NCBI GenBank assembly: GCA_003999685.1
Contig: CP021224.1
Span: 496,001-560,000 of the forward strand
Length of the DNA: 64,000 nt
From: Taiwanofungus camphoratus
Taxonomy: Eukaryota; Basidiomycota; Agaricomycetes; Polyporales; Taiwanofungaceae
Direction of reading: 5' to 3'
This document shows positions 26,558 to 30,679 of the stretch, one piece after another (within the stretch, counting starts at the first letter, position 1; each line of letters opens with the position of its first letter). Made by a program: the position numbers and the translations under genes. A model generated the notes under the pieces. It made no database searches. It was not told the origin of the DNA and saw only the letters and a list, made by a program, of their open reading frames with translations.

Positions 26558-27050
26558 GGCCGTTCGGAACGATGACCAGCACCTACTAGTATACAGAGCG
26601 CTTCATCACGTCTCAACGTTATTATCTCGTTTGTTTATTGTCGAGCATACTCTGTAATGTTTACTATAGACGAAAGTCACACAACCATATTTGGAAGGAA
26701 ATGTGAGCTGATTTGAAGAGCGGAAGTCCTGCGTGCCATATATTCATAGACTGACGGCCTGGAAGATTTTCCAGTATAGCAAGGACTAGCGTTACAGGGA
26801 CTGATCGATCCATTGAAACGCTATCTGTTCTAAATCAAGCGGAACGCGATGACTGCGTCGTTCGACAGGACCTCTGTATGGGACACTTTTGACCTGTTGG
26901 GAGAGATACGCTTGAGCTGCATCAGGAAAAATGCAGATAACTATGTAGCTGGATGTGCTACAGTCTATAGCACTGTATAGTGCTACATATTTGGTTGTAG
27001 CTACCCCGATTTTCCTGATATAGTGAGCCTAATTCTAAGGGAGGAGAAGG
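26558..27050. other. Intergenic stretch before the U6 gene
   Basis: No gene seen. It contains the 3' flanks of the small acidic-protein gene and of the minus-strand U6 gene. Confidence 0.5.
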
Positions 27051-27115
27051 AAAATAAATATTGAGACCCGTAGGTCTACCACTCCGGGAAAGCGTGTCAT
27101 CCTTGTGCAGGGGCC

Positions 27116-27146
<31 letters not shown>

Positions 27147-27170
27147 TTCGTATGTCACCCCGAAGGGGAC
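27051..27170 (-). ncRNA. U6 spliceosomal RNA, copy 1
   Basis: Read on the minus strand from 27170, the RNA starts with a UUCG-capped 5' hairpin (GTCCCCTTCGGGGTGAC) and contains the invariant U6 core: GGAACGATACAGAGAAGATT, with the ACAGAGA box that pairs with the 5' splice site, then AGCATGGCCCCTGCACAAGG with the AGC triad, and ATGACACGC. It ends in a run of four T (27054-27051), as expected for RNA polymerase III termination. The gene has no intron, although U6 introns occur in some basidiomycetes. The 120 nt are identical to copy 2 at 30560-30679, which lies on the other strand. Confidence 0.97.
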
Positions 27171-27211
27171 AAGTAATTATGATGAGTAGTCCAGTCAAGG
27201 ACAATGCAATC

Positions 27212-27232
27212 GCATTTTGTTCAATCGGCGGG
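27212..27232 (-). promoter_or_regulatory. Conserved upstream element of U6 copy 1
   Basis: TGAACAAAATGC begins exactly 53 nt upstream of the U6 5' end, and is preceded by CCCGCC and three variable bases. The same arrangement at the same distance precedes copy 2, while the sequence between the element and the RNA differs. This suggests a polymerase III upstream (PSE/USE-like) promoter element. Confidence 0.65.
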
Positions 27233-27675
27233 GAGCGCGATCACATGATACACACGTCCTCAAGATGAGCTACTACTAGCAGCCCTCGAGCTTCAAGCTT
27301 CGGGTCCCAGAAACAGCTGATATGATGTCCCCAATATGCTCACACTTGAAATCTCATTCAGATCATTCAGGAATGCTACCGATCACCAGCCAGCCCCTCT
27401 GGTAGATGCATCGTACACGCCAGTCTGAACACTGACGGCTGACAATGGCTGACACGACCAATGCGCCATAAGGACAGCGCGGTGAGCACCGTTAGCCATT
27501 CCTTCTTGTCTCTTTCTTTCATCACGCACTTTTCTTCAGGCCCAGGTGGTCTCATTTTTCTATACTTTCAGCTTTCACATTCTTCATTGCGACAGGATCG
27601 CCCCATACTTTCCTTCTTAACCACTCTCCTTGACTCTCGCTTTTTACGCACCTTCTTTTGATTCACATATCTGCT
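27233..27675. other. Intergenic stretch
   Basis: Promoter and leader of the His-rich secreted protein gene. The last 200 bases are pyrimidine-rich (TTCTTGTCTCTTTCTTTC and similar), which is common in leaders of strongly expressed fungal genes. No gene seen. Confidence 0.45.
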
Positions 27676-30313
27676 ATGGTTGTCCTGACTCCCCGCTTTG
27701 CCCTCTTGGCTGCGCTGTCCTCTATCGCCGCCGTCTCAGCCTTGCCTGCCCCGCTCGATAGCGCTGCCATTCAGATCTACTACCGCGACTCGGAGTCAGC
27801 ATCTAGCGCCTCTCATCATGCTACTCACTCCCATACCTTCACTCGTACTTCTTCTGCTGATGCTCCGTCGTCCACTCCATCTGGCTCTGTGGACGATGAC
27901 AAGCCTCAGCGCCAACCCAAACCGGTCATCCCCCTCCCGTCGCGGCGGACGGAGGTTGGCGCCGCCAAAGAGACAGGCTCTCAATCTTCGGCAGGGCACG
28001 ACGCCAAGGAACACGATGACAAAAAGGAGATCAAACATGACAAGGGAAAGGTGAGCAGCGTTGTGCCTATTAAGATGCTTTTCGCGGTGTGACACATGAC
28101 GTTGCAACAGAGAGCAACTTGGGACCCGCTCAATCCTATCCTTCAGCTGGGCGACATCTGGATTGGAGCCCCATCTCGCTTCAGGCGCGATATGAAGGTC
28201 GTCAGCCTCCCTCCTTTGCTCGACAAGAGGCACCACCATGATCACGAGAAGGTGATTGTCAAGGGCGATCACGACCATGTCAACGTCCACCACCGCACTC
28301 TATCGTCCTCACGCATCTTTGGGCGTGCACCGCATGATAGGGTTGTTGTGAAGGGCAAAAATGATCACGTTCATGTGCACAGCGACGACGGACACGACAA
28401 GGTCGTCGTAAAGGGCCAGAATGACCATGTCCACGTCCATCGCTCGCCCCACGATCATCATGACAAAGTGGTCGTGAAGGGTGACGACGACCACGTTCAT
28501 GTCCACCGTTCGCCGGAGCCTCACCATCATGATCATGCGAAGGTGATCGTAGAAGGCGACCACGACCATGTCAATGTCCATCGCTCTCCTGAACCTCATC
28601 ACCATGATGACCACGACAAGGTGATTGTCAAAGGCGACCATGATCATGTTAACGTACATCGTTCTCCGGAACCTCACCACCATCATGATCATGATAAGGT
28701 GATCGTAAAGGGCGACCACGACCATGTCAATGTTCATCGTTCTCCCGAGCCTCACCACCATCACGACCACGACAAGGTGATCGTCAAAGGCGACCACATC
28801 AATGTACACTCAAGAGACATGCATCCATCCATCTACATCTCTGGCGACCGGGGGGACTCGTATATGGTTGCGAACGTCCGCAGACATCACTCACACGACG
28901 AGCATGACAAGGTAGTGGTGAAGGGAGATGACGATAACGTCCACGTACATATGCGGCGCGACGGTCTGCAGATCCCAGGCGTTCCTGGCTCGATCGATAT
29001 CATTGTGCGCACTAATCATTGCTTTTCGTGTACGGAATCCAACTTCCGCTGATTTCGCCCTTATGTTTTCACAGAGCCAGGTCGTCAACTCAACTGTTGG
29101 TCAAAAGATCGCGTCCCTCGTTCTGTCTCAACCGGACAACAGTACTGCTGCCGACAACTCCACTGCAAGCTTTGTCCTCAATGCTTCCGGCGCGGATCAG
29201 ACCCAGATCTACCTTGTGGCTGCGCCTCCCGATCTCTCGAACTCGACCGCCTCTAATACCACAGCCTCGAATTCAACGGCTGCAGATGGCTTAAGTCCTG
29301 CGTCGTTCGTTAAGGTATTGCTGCAACTCCCCGTGTTCGATCCGGAGCACGCCATGATGAAGGCCTACTGCGCGACGTTCGACCCCAATCCGCCTGCACC
29401 CTCGCCTCTTATGGTCGAAATGTGCATGAACGACACTCAGGGCGACGAGCATAAGAGCCAGGTCTTCGCATATGAACCTGACACCGGTGTCATTCGCCCG
29501 ATGTGGTTCAATGGCGAGGACGACGGAACGGACGACTCTGATCCCGCCGATTCCTCTGATGACCCGACCTCGAGCTCGAACTCAACCACAGTTGACCCCA
29601 CGACGCCCTCGAGCGACAAGGTTGTCAATGTCACCAGCCTGGACGAGATGGCACTCGACAAGCAGTTCGGCGATGCGACGCGGCCACCACTTCATGCTGG
29701 CCTGGCGAAGGAGTTTGACGCAGACCCTGGGTTTGCACGCAACGTCACGCTCGTGTTCACCCCTGCGGCGCCTGAGATTATGCCGCAGAAGACTGTTGAC
29801 AACGACTCGGACTCGGACTCGACTTCTGATGCTGACACTTCGACTTCGAGCTCGGCTACTGCTACAGTTTCTGCGTCTGCGACCAGCTCAGATAATGTGT
29901 CTGCAGCCTCTGACATGGCTACGGCTACTGCGACGTCTAGTTCCACGGACTTGGAGACTGCTTCTGCTTCGGCAACACCATTAGCGGCCAAATTCGAATC
30001 TACTACTGTGACGACAACCTCTGGCTCGGCTACTGCTTCTGCGACGAGCTCTGCTACCTCTGCCTCTCTTGCTGTCGAGGTGTACAACCCTGGGGCCTCT
30101 TCTTCAGCTTCGACCGATTCCACGGCATCCACAGCTTCTGCTTCGCCTTCGGATTCGATCGGTGCGCAGGACATGGAGGCTACAAGCAGCATCACGCCGA
30201 CTGATACCGCTACTGAGAGCCTGAGCGGTGCAAGCTCGACGATGACACCAGTAAGCACTGCGCCGTACGAGTGGATGTTCCGGGAGGGAACTGTGAAGGC
30301 GACTCGTTCTTGA
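27676..30313 (+). CDS. Secreted protein with nine His/Asp-rich repeats and a Ser/Thr-rich tail; function unknown
   Basis: Three exons (27676-28050, 28111-29004, 29075-30313; both introns in phase 0) encode 835 residues. The start MVVLTPRFALLAALSSIAAV followed by SALPAP is a clear signal peptide. Exon 2 holds nine units of the form DKVIVKGDHDHVNVH, most separated by RSPEPHHHHDH spacers. Each unit alternates hydrophobic and polar residues around a G-(D/K/Q)-(H/N/D)-D turn, so each could form a beta hairpin with His side chains on one face. Exon 3 encodes a domain with N-glycosylation sites (NSTASNTTASNSTA), four possible disulphide Cys residues (AYCATF, VEMCMN and others), SFVKVLLQLPVFDPEHAMMK, then a long Ser/Thr/Ala-rich stretch typical of O-glycosylated wall proteins. 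No GPI signal is evident. Metal binding by the repeats is an inference. The gene is flanked by inverted U6 copies. Confidence 0.85.
28231..28950 (+). repeat. Tandem coding repeats of about 66-81 bp (His/Asp-rich units)
   Basis: Nine in-frame units with core (K/R)V(I/V)VKG followed by two or three Asp/His/Asn and HV(N/H)VH. Units 5-8 have nearly identical spacers of about 78 bp period, suggesting recent expansion; units 1-3 and 9 are more diverged. Confidence 0.9.
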
Positions 30314-30497
30314 GTTAGCAACAAGGGCGACGTTAGAGTCATTTTCTCTGTTCTTGTCCGATGTACCTTACTACATTATACCTACATTCATTTACGAATC
30401 ATCGACGTCCCCATGTTAGACTTAATACGACATGATAAAATTAAGACCCAAGCATCGCTCATTATTGGGCCGCAGGTAATCCGACCGTGGGAAGAAA

Positions 30498-30518
30498 CCC
30501 GCCATCTGAACAAAATGC
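30498..30518 (+). promoter_or_regulatory. Conserved upstream element of U6 copy 2
   Basis: CCCGCC, three variable bases, then TGAACAAAATGC (30507-30518), starting 53 nt before the U6 5' end at 30560. It has the same spacing and the same 12-mer as upstream of copy 1. Confidence 0.65.
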
Positions 30519-30559
30519 ATAACGCCGCCTCACACTCTCAGTTCATGGCCCACAATGTT

Positions 30560-30583
30560 GTCCCCTTCGGGGTGACATACGAA

Positions 30584-30614
<31 letters not shown>

Positions 30615-30679
30615 GGCCCCTGCACAAGGATGACACGCTTTCCCGGAGTGGTAGACCTACGGGTCTCAATATTTATTTT
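30560..30679 (+). ncRNA. U6 spliceosomal RNA, copy 2
   Basis: A 120-nt U6 snRNA identical base for base to copy 1 on the opposite strand at 27051-27170. It has the UUCG-capped 5' hairpin, the ACAGAGA box, the AGC triad, the GATGACACGC internal stem-loop start, a GTAGACCTACGGGTCTC 3' stem, and a terminating TTTT at 30676-30679. It has no intron. Confidence 0.97.

What the first reader, a model, noticed from the sequence alone, without database searches (positions are those of the whole stretch)
27051..30679. Two identical U6 snRNA genes in opposite orientation with a shared upstream element at exactly -53
Copies at 27051-27170 (-) and 30560-30679 (+) are identical over 120 nt, while their flanks are not. 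In both, TGAACAAAATGC starts 53 nt before the RNA, preceded by CCCGCC and three variable bases. Everything between the element and the RNA has diverged. This is what a conserved basidiomycete polymerase III upstream element would look like, and such elements are little described in these fungi. It also shows the two copies are kept identical by selection or gene conversion.
Basis: partly seen in the sequence, partly recalled or inferred. Interest (0 to 1): 0.72.

Follow-up and report, generated by a model that had tools for sequence, protein, structure and literature searches.

The report
Fungal U6/U5 shared promoter element
A short DNA signal found before two identical splicing-RNA (U6) genes of an unnamed fungus also stands at the same place before its other U6 genes (in one of them only in part) and before its U5 genes, while U1, U2 and U4 use a different signal that a family of jumping genes also carries.

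Summary
Both U6 genes are real, identical over 120 nt, and carry CCCGCC-N3-TGAACAAAATGC at -62..-42 in unrelated flanks. The genome (33.2 Mb) has five U6 genes. Four carry the element, with up to three mismatches, at exactly this place; the fifth keeps AAATAC there with CCCGC shifted 4 nt, and is the only copy with a base change in the RNA. Random shifts never reached the signal (0 of 20,000). A pattern search made before U5 was located also hit both U5 genes, starting at -61/-62. U5 has internal T-runs that Pol III should not read through, so the element looks like a general snRNA element, not a Pol III one. No U6 gene shows a TATA box or a B box above background. U1, U2 and U4 use another element, GGTCCGTGCG at -55 to -59, mostly with TATA; as bait it found four U1 genes that Rfam's U1 model missed. 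The same element and spacing sit in LTRs of a Ty3-like lineage (96 of the 100 listed of 147 hits). A SNAPC3 homologue is encoded. Best reading: a PSE-like core element, probably SNAPc-bound. Binding, expression and conservation are untested; a published Flammulina motif aligns weakly.

The parts
30560..30679 (+). U6 snRNA gene; 120 nt ending in TTTT
   Evidence: Rfam RF00026 87.1 bits; first TTTT at +117
27051..27170 (-). U6 snRNA gene, identical over 120 nt to the + copy
   Evidence: Rfam RF00026 87.1 bits; identity
30498..30518 (+). class A upstream element CCCGCCATCTGAACAAAATGC, -62 to -42 of the + U6
27212..27232 (-). class A upstream element CCCGCCGATTGAACAAAATGC, -62 to -42 of the - U6
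30676..30679 (+). TTTT, presumed Pol III terminator of the + U6
   Evidence: sequence, position +117
27051..27054 (-). TTTT, presumed Pol III terminator of the - U6
   Evidence: sequence, position +117

Best explanation
The element (class A: CCCGY-N4-TSMACRRAATRC, -62 to -42) is the core upstream promoter element of U6 and U5 genes in this fungus, the counterpart of the metazoan PSE and plant USE. Most likely a SNAPc-type complex binds it and places TBP and the initiation factors about 10 bp downstream, near -30, without a TATA box. Pol III is chosen for U6 and Pol II for U5 by something other than this element or a TATA box (gene-internal sequence, or sequence below -41). U1, U2 and U4 use a second core promoter, class B: GGTCCGTGCG at -55 to -59, followed after about 14 bp by TATA in most copies. 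Shown: position-locked elements, the class split, no TATA or B box above background at U6, a SNAPC3 homologue. Inferred: that class A is a promoter, SNAPc binding, and the polymerase assignment (from T-runs).
For: Pattern CCGCCNNNTGAACAAAATGC with up to 3 mismatches, run before the U5 genes were located, gave 55 genome hits (reverse-read control 41); 4 lie at exactly -53 of U6 genes and 2 at -52/-53 of the two U5 genes. Stretches of 0.6-3 kb around the other 49 sites were scanned with Rfam: one tRNA about 306 nt away, nothing else over the cut-offs. Degenerate pattern made from these six elements: 7 zero-mismatch hits in the genome, 6 of them the same six. Shift test: 0 of 20,000 for 5 U6 and 0 of 20,000 for 5 U6 + 2 U5. 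The only U6 copy with a damaged element (CCCGC moved by 4 nt, AAATAC in place) is the only one with a change in the RNA. TATA: 0 of 5 U6 and 0 of 2 U5 have a 6/6 match at -42..-19, against 7 of 9 U1/U2/U4 genes. B box: best match equalled by 44-100 of 100 shuffles in each of 5 U6 genes over -400..+600. SNAPC3: one PF12251 hit, E 4.6e-13, and human SNAPC3 in PDB 7XUR, E 1.3e-4. Human SNAPc contacts DNA in the registers -57 to -35 (PMC9758055, passages), overlapping -62..-42.
Against: No binding or expression data. Class B sits at the same distance and could be the SNAPc site instead. One of five U6 genes lacks the full element. One U5 has a 5/6 TATA-like TATCAA at -24, reached by 0 of 500 random windows upstream of it, so the lack of TATA at U5 is not clean. 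Of SNAPc only SNAPC3 was looked for. Published mushroom work reports TATA boxes for all three Poria cocos U6 promoters (PMC9441760, passages) and for SrU6-3 of Stropharia (PMC13117603, passages), so TATA-less U6 is not general. A gene-internal A-box role in U6 was not tested. One zero-mismatch class A site (C2:2933098) has no known gene.
Confidence: 0.7

Rival explanations
1. A Pol III-specific upstream element of U6.
For: Present at 4 of 5 U6 genes; not seen at -100..-1 of the U2 and U4 genes.
Against: Both U5 genes carry it at the same distance, and U5 has TTTT at +38/+39 and TTTTT at +88/+90, which should stop Pol III.
Confidence: 0.1
2. An activator or architectural-factor site (not SNAPc) that happens to be fixed at -62..-42, with SNAPc binding class B only.
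For: Two unrelated motifs at the same distance; no binding data; class B with TATA is the more canonical-looking core promoter.
Against: Fixed to within 1 nt at six genes, unusual for activator sites (general knowledge); it is the best shared block of U6 and U5 in -200..-1.
Confidence: 0.25
3. A relic of gene duplication: flanks copied along with U6 and not yet diverged.
For: Three U6 copies lie within 35 kb on one contig.
Against: Outside the element the flanks are at 0.20-0.46 identity in all ten U6 pairs, and the element recurs at U5, an unrelated RNA.
Confidence: 0.03
4. Chance similarity of two sequences.
For: The 12-mer alone is expected about 4 times in both strands of 33.2 Mb (arithmetic) and occurs in a repeat.
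Against: 0 of 20,000 shifts; both U5 genes among the hits.
Confidence: 0.01

Closest known systems
[quoted passage not shown]
   Same: About 21 bp, gene-external, roughly -60 to -40, shared by a Pol III gene (U6) and a Pol II gene (U5, inferred); a SNAPC3 homologue is encoded.
   Different: In vertebrates a TATA box marks the Pol III gene; here U6 has none and most U1, U2 and U4 genes have one. The vertebrate PSEs of both classes are interchangeable; here two unrelated elements divide the snRNA genes.
Plant USE (RTCCCACATCG at -70) plus TATA (PMC9845283, passages; PMC12133305, passages, where the USE serves as a finder of RNA genes)
   Same: Upstream element shared by U6 and Pol II snRNA genes; usable as bait for RNA genes, as class B was here.
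   Different: Other sequence; plants have TATA in both classes and set the polymerase by spacing.
Budding-yeast SNR6: TATA plus downstream B box with TFIIIC (recalled)
   Same: Fungal U6 gene with a T-run end.
   Different: No TATA and no B box above shuffles here.
Flammulina filiformis U6 motif GGTAATGCAAAACT, in four of four U6 promoters without typical TATA (PMC9318071; passages and figures-and-tables section)
   Same: Shared motif in TATA-less mushroom U6 promoters; best register on our genes is -49, so its AATGC overlies the 3' end of class A.
   Different: Its position in Flammulina is in a figure not held; no CCCGC half is mentioned in what I read; the match is only modestly significant.

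Membership tests
U6 spliceosomal RNA (RF00026) | Score above Rfam gathering | tested here: met
   87.1 bits vs 44, both copies; 5 genes in the genome
U6 spliceosomal RNA (RF00026) | Pol III-compatible body and T-run end | tested here: met
   First run of four or more T at +117 in 5 of 5
PSE/SNAPc-type snRNA promoter | Fixed upstream element at about -65 to -40 | tested here: met
   -62..-42 in 4 of 5 U6 (fifth in part); start at -61/-62 in 2 of 2 U5
PSE/SNAPc-type snRNA promoter | Element shared by Pol II and Pol III snRNA genes | tested here: met
   U5 and U6 share it, U2 and U4 carry another; polymerase inferred from T-runs
PSE/SNAPc-type snRNA promoter | TATA box at the Pol III gene (vertebrate type 3) | tested here: not met
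   0 of 5 U6 genes better than 4/6 at -42..-19
PSE/SNAPc-type snRNA promoter | SNAPC3 core subunit encoded | tested here: met
   PF12251 E 4.6e-13, 7XUR chain B E 1.3e-4
PSE/SNAPc-type snRNA promoter | SNAPC1 and SNAPC4 encoded | not tested
   cap of genome searches reached
PSE/SNAPc-type snRNA promoter | SNAPc binds the element | not testable with these tools
   needs EMSA or ChIP
Plant USE-TATA snRNA promoter | TATA at about -30 in U6 | tested here: not met
Yeast-type U6 promoter (TATA + B box) | B box near the gene | tested here: not met
   best GGTTCGANTCC match 7-8 of 10 in -400..+600, equalled by 44-100 of 100 shuffles in each of 5 genes
U1 snRNA (four class B genes) | ATACTTACCT 5' end and conserved body | tested here: met
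   4 copies, mean column identity 91%; ACTTACC was part of the bait
U1 snRNA (four class B genes) | Rfam RF00003 gathering score | tested here: not met
   no genome hit; best 25.4 bits vs 69.5, E 0.0048, in 1 of the 4 loci, starting at ATACTTACC
Ty3-type LTR retrotransposon (class B repeats) | Paired LTRs, target-site duplication, Pol domains | tested here: inconclusive
   3 of 3 pairs compared 96.6-99.8% identical over 548-565 nt; 5-bp duplications by eye in 2 of 2 elements read; Tf2-1-like SH3 domain E 2.7e-11; reverse transcriptase not tested

The most novel reading that the evidence does not exclude
This fungus runs its spliceosomal RNA genes from two unrelated core promoters that do not follow the polymerase: TATA-less class A for U6 (Pol III) and U5 (Pol II), and class B with TATA for U1, U2 and U4. 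This is the reverse of the vertebrate TATA rule. In addition, a retrotransposon lineage has taken up the class B snRNA promoter, element and spacing, to drive its LTR.
Probability: 0.45. Interest if true: 0.75.

Novelty: new variant of a known kind. Interest (0 to 1): 0.6.

Why it matters
U6 promoters of mushrooms are used for guide RNAs, yet the papers read here describe few elements in them: no PSE seen in Poria cocos (though TATA and CAAT boxes are reported), no typical TATA in Flammulina, Ganoderma and two of three Stropharia copies, one shared motif in Flammulina. A 21-bp element at -62..-42 gives a direct target for promoter tests and for asking what chooses Pol III without a TATA box. 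The class B promoter already works as a gene finder (four U1 genes), and its presence in LTRs opens the question whether retrotransposons borrow the snRNA machinery.

Tried and rejected
Related species: exact U6 patterns in viral contigs and genome contigs found 0 contigs; the class A pattern in viral contigs gave 7 contigs with no U6 in the next 80 nt by eye, taken as chance. U1 by exact ATACTTACCTGG gave 5 places (control 1), none with a full class A or B element in the 110 nt upstream by eye, taken as complements of splice sites. RF00003 gave no U1. The Flammulina motif against -66..-39 alone was not significant (191 of 2,000 shuffles). Over -200..-1, five of seven genes agree on one register, matched with at least that score by 6 of 1,500 shuffles; the plain ungapped test is weaker. 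The 31-nt shift test of class B on three U2 and one U4 was weak (28 of 5,000; L008 left out because it shares 3' flanks with L007); I ascribe this to U2 and U4 5' ends differing by 1-2 nt. The exact 10-mer at -55..-57 in 4 of 4 U2 and 1 of 2 U4 genes carries that case. The second U4-like copy (L041) shows neither element nor an AATTTTTGG Sm site by eye and was left out as a probable pseudogene. RNase P, RNase MRP, SRP and U3 were not searched genome-wide (cap reached). 190,004 bases of sequence not chosen for class B held no GGTCCGTGCG, too little to say that it is rare. Passages of PMC5430836 (Coprinopsis) held nothing on the element.

Full report
Observation. Both match RF00026 at 87.1 bits against a gathering score of 44, are identical over 120 nt and carry CCCGCC-N3-TGAACAAAATGC, with TGAAC starting 53 nt before the RNA. 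Outside the element the flanks are at random identity.

All U6 genes found in the genome. The window is part of a 33,194,378-base assembly in 15 contigs, and five U6 genes score over the cut-off. Four are identical over 120 nt; the fifth (C3, L005) differs at position 111. The best 21-column block over the five upstream regions is exactly -62..-42, 27.45 bits; random shifts reach at most 21.22 (0 of 20,000). Identity of the ten U6 pairs is 0.20-0.46 in the three stretches outside the element and 0.29-0.86 in the element; the six pairs without L005 have 0.67-0.86 there.

Other genes with the element. Four are U6 genes. When U5 genes were then located by Rfam (two genes), two more of the 55 proved to lie at -52/-53 of both. 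The remaining 49 sites were scanned with Rfam in stretches of 0.6-3 kb (20, 20, 9); the one hit is a tRNA about 306 nt away. A degenerate pattern built from the six elements, with up to one mismatch, has 11 hits (control 6); of the 7 with none, 6 are these genes (expected, as it was built from them) and one, at C2:2933098, is unexplained. U5 genes have internal TTTT and TTTTT runs, whereas all five U6 genes have their first run of four T at +117. U5 is therefore taken as Pol II and U6 as Pol III, by inference from established termination behaviour.

TATA and B box. Between -42 and -19 no U6 gene has more than 4 of 6 matches to TATAAA or TATATA; the two U5 genes have 4 and 5. The best B-box match in -400..+600 is no better than in shuffled sequence in all five U6 genes.

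The second promoter class. U2 (four genes) and the better U4 (one of two) carry GGTCCGTGCG at -55 to -57 and, in three of these five, TATATAA 14 nt further on; one more has TATTTAC and one CCTAAAG at that place (by eye). RF00003 had found no U1. The bait GGTCCGTG-N36-66-ACTTACC gave five places; the reverse-read control gave six, so the number alone means nothing. Four of the five, however, are copies of one RNA, 91% mean column identity, beginning ATACTTACCTTGATGG, each with a 6/6 TATA match upstream. At a relaxed threshold Rfam scores one of the four as U1, 25.4 bits, E 0.0048, starting at that base. GGTCCGTG and ACTTACC are there by construction; GTGCG beyond it, the TATA box and the spacers of 13-15 nt are not.

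Class B in repeats. GGTCCGTGCG-N10-30-TATATAA has 147 genome hits and none in the reverse-read control. Only 100 are listed: 3 are U2/U4 genes, 96 read as one repeat sequence and 1 is other (C2:1354206); 47 were not seen. In 30 fetched repeat loci the spacer is 14 nt in 28 and 15 in 2. The repeats are LTRs of about 550 nt: three of three pairs compared are 96.6-99.8% identical, two of two elements read have 5-bp duplications by eye, and one internal end encodes a Tf2-1-like SH3 domain. A pattern that leaves out this repeat's main sequence, GGTCCGTGCGYRH-N8-12-TATA, has 19 rows, 18 distinct sites, control 0: 7 snRNA genes and 11 of repeat type, 10 of which share GGTACTTGTATA. One pair of these was fetched and one member compared; it is a related LTR subfamily. 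Membership of the others is read from the printed match. Among the sites seen in these two calls only C2:1354206 is neither snRNA nor repeat. The stretch between the two motifs looks unlike in snRNA genes and LTRs, which argues for shared function rather than copied sequence (inference).

Machinery. One SNAPC3 (PF12251) match is present, and its fragment matches human SNAPC3. Human SNAPc contacts the PSE at -57 to -35 (PMC9758055, passages). In vertebrates the TATA box directs a PSE promoter to Pol III (PMC6004067, passages; PMC3499247, passages); here TATA goes with U1, U2 and U4.

Literature. Searches that combined U6, snRNA or promoter terms with basidiomycete, mushroom, PSE or SNAPc terms showed no description of either element in the listed titles, abstract starts and the passages that I read; this holds only for this open-licence library. 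The nearest is the Flammulina motif (PMC9318071, passages and figures-and-tables section). Poria cocos authors saw no PSE but report TATA and CAAT boxes (PMC9441760, passages); Stropharia has TATA in one of three (PMC13117603, passages). A search for LTR retrotransposon with snRNA promoter gave six papers, five listed, judged by titles and abstract starts only, none on this subject as far as these show.

Verdict. A real snRNA core element, wider than claimed (U6 and U5), in a two-class system, with SNAPc binding likely but unshown.

Noticed in passing
L044-L073, e.g. L047:1202-1766 (C1): LTRs of a high-copy retrotransposon lineage carry the U1/U2/U4-type promoter (GGTCCGTGCG, 14 nt, TATATAA) in mid-LTR; a related subfamily (L121, L122) has it too.
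   Followed up: partly
L111, L112, L114, L115: Four divergent U1 snRNA genes that fall below Rfam's U1 cut-off, found through their promoter.
   Followed up: partly
window 26921-27019: About 99-bp element with perfect 10-bp terminal inverted repeats ATCAGGAAAA/TTTTCCTGAT, MITE-like, 31 bp beyond the 3' end of the minus U6.
   Followed up: no
window 28462-28797: 78-nt tandem repeat (4.3 copies) coding a His/Asp-rich protein stretch (P0004) in the gene between the two U6 genes.
   Followed up: no
window 30653-30666: The 3' part of U6 holds a possible hairpin AGACC-UACG-GGUCU, partly an insert to the Rfam consensus; the whole fold is no better than shuffles.
   Followed up: no
L116:99-119 (C2:2933098): Zero-mismatch class A site without an Rfam RNA; AATTTTTTG, like an Sm site, lies about 92 nt after it. 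Possibly chance.
   Followed up: partly
L041: Second U4-like copy (53.2 bits) without promoter element or Sm site by eye, probable pseudogene.
   Followed up: no
G000 C5:233,888-526,676: One U1, two U2 and three U6 genes lie within 293 kb of one contig; the two U2 genes share 3' flanks by eye, as from an inverted duplication.
   Followed up: no
L123:157-183 (C2:1354206): GGTCCGTGCG followed by TATATAA after 10 nt instead of 14, no RNA family found.
   Followed up: no
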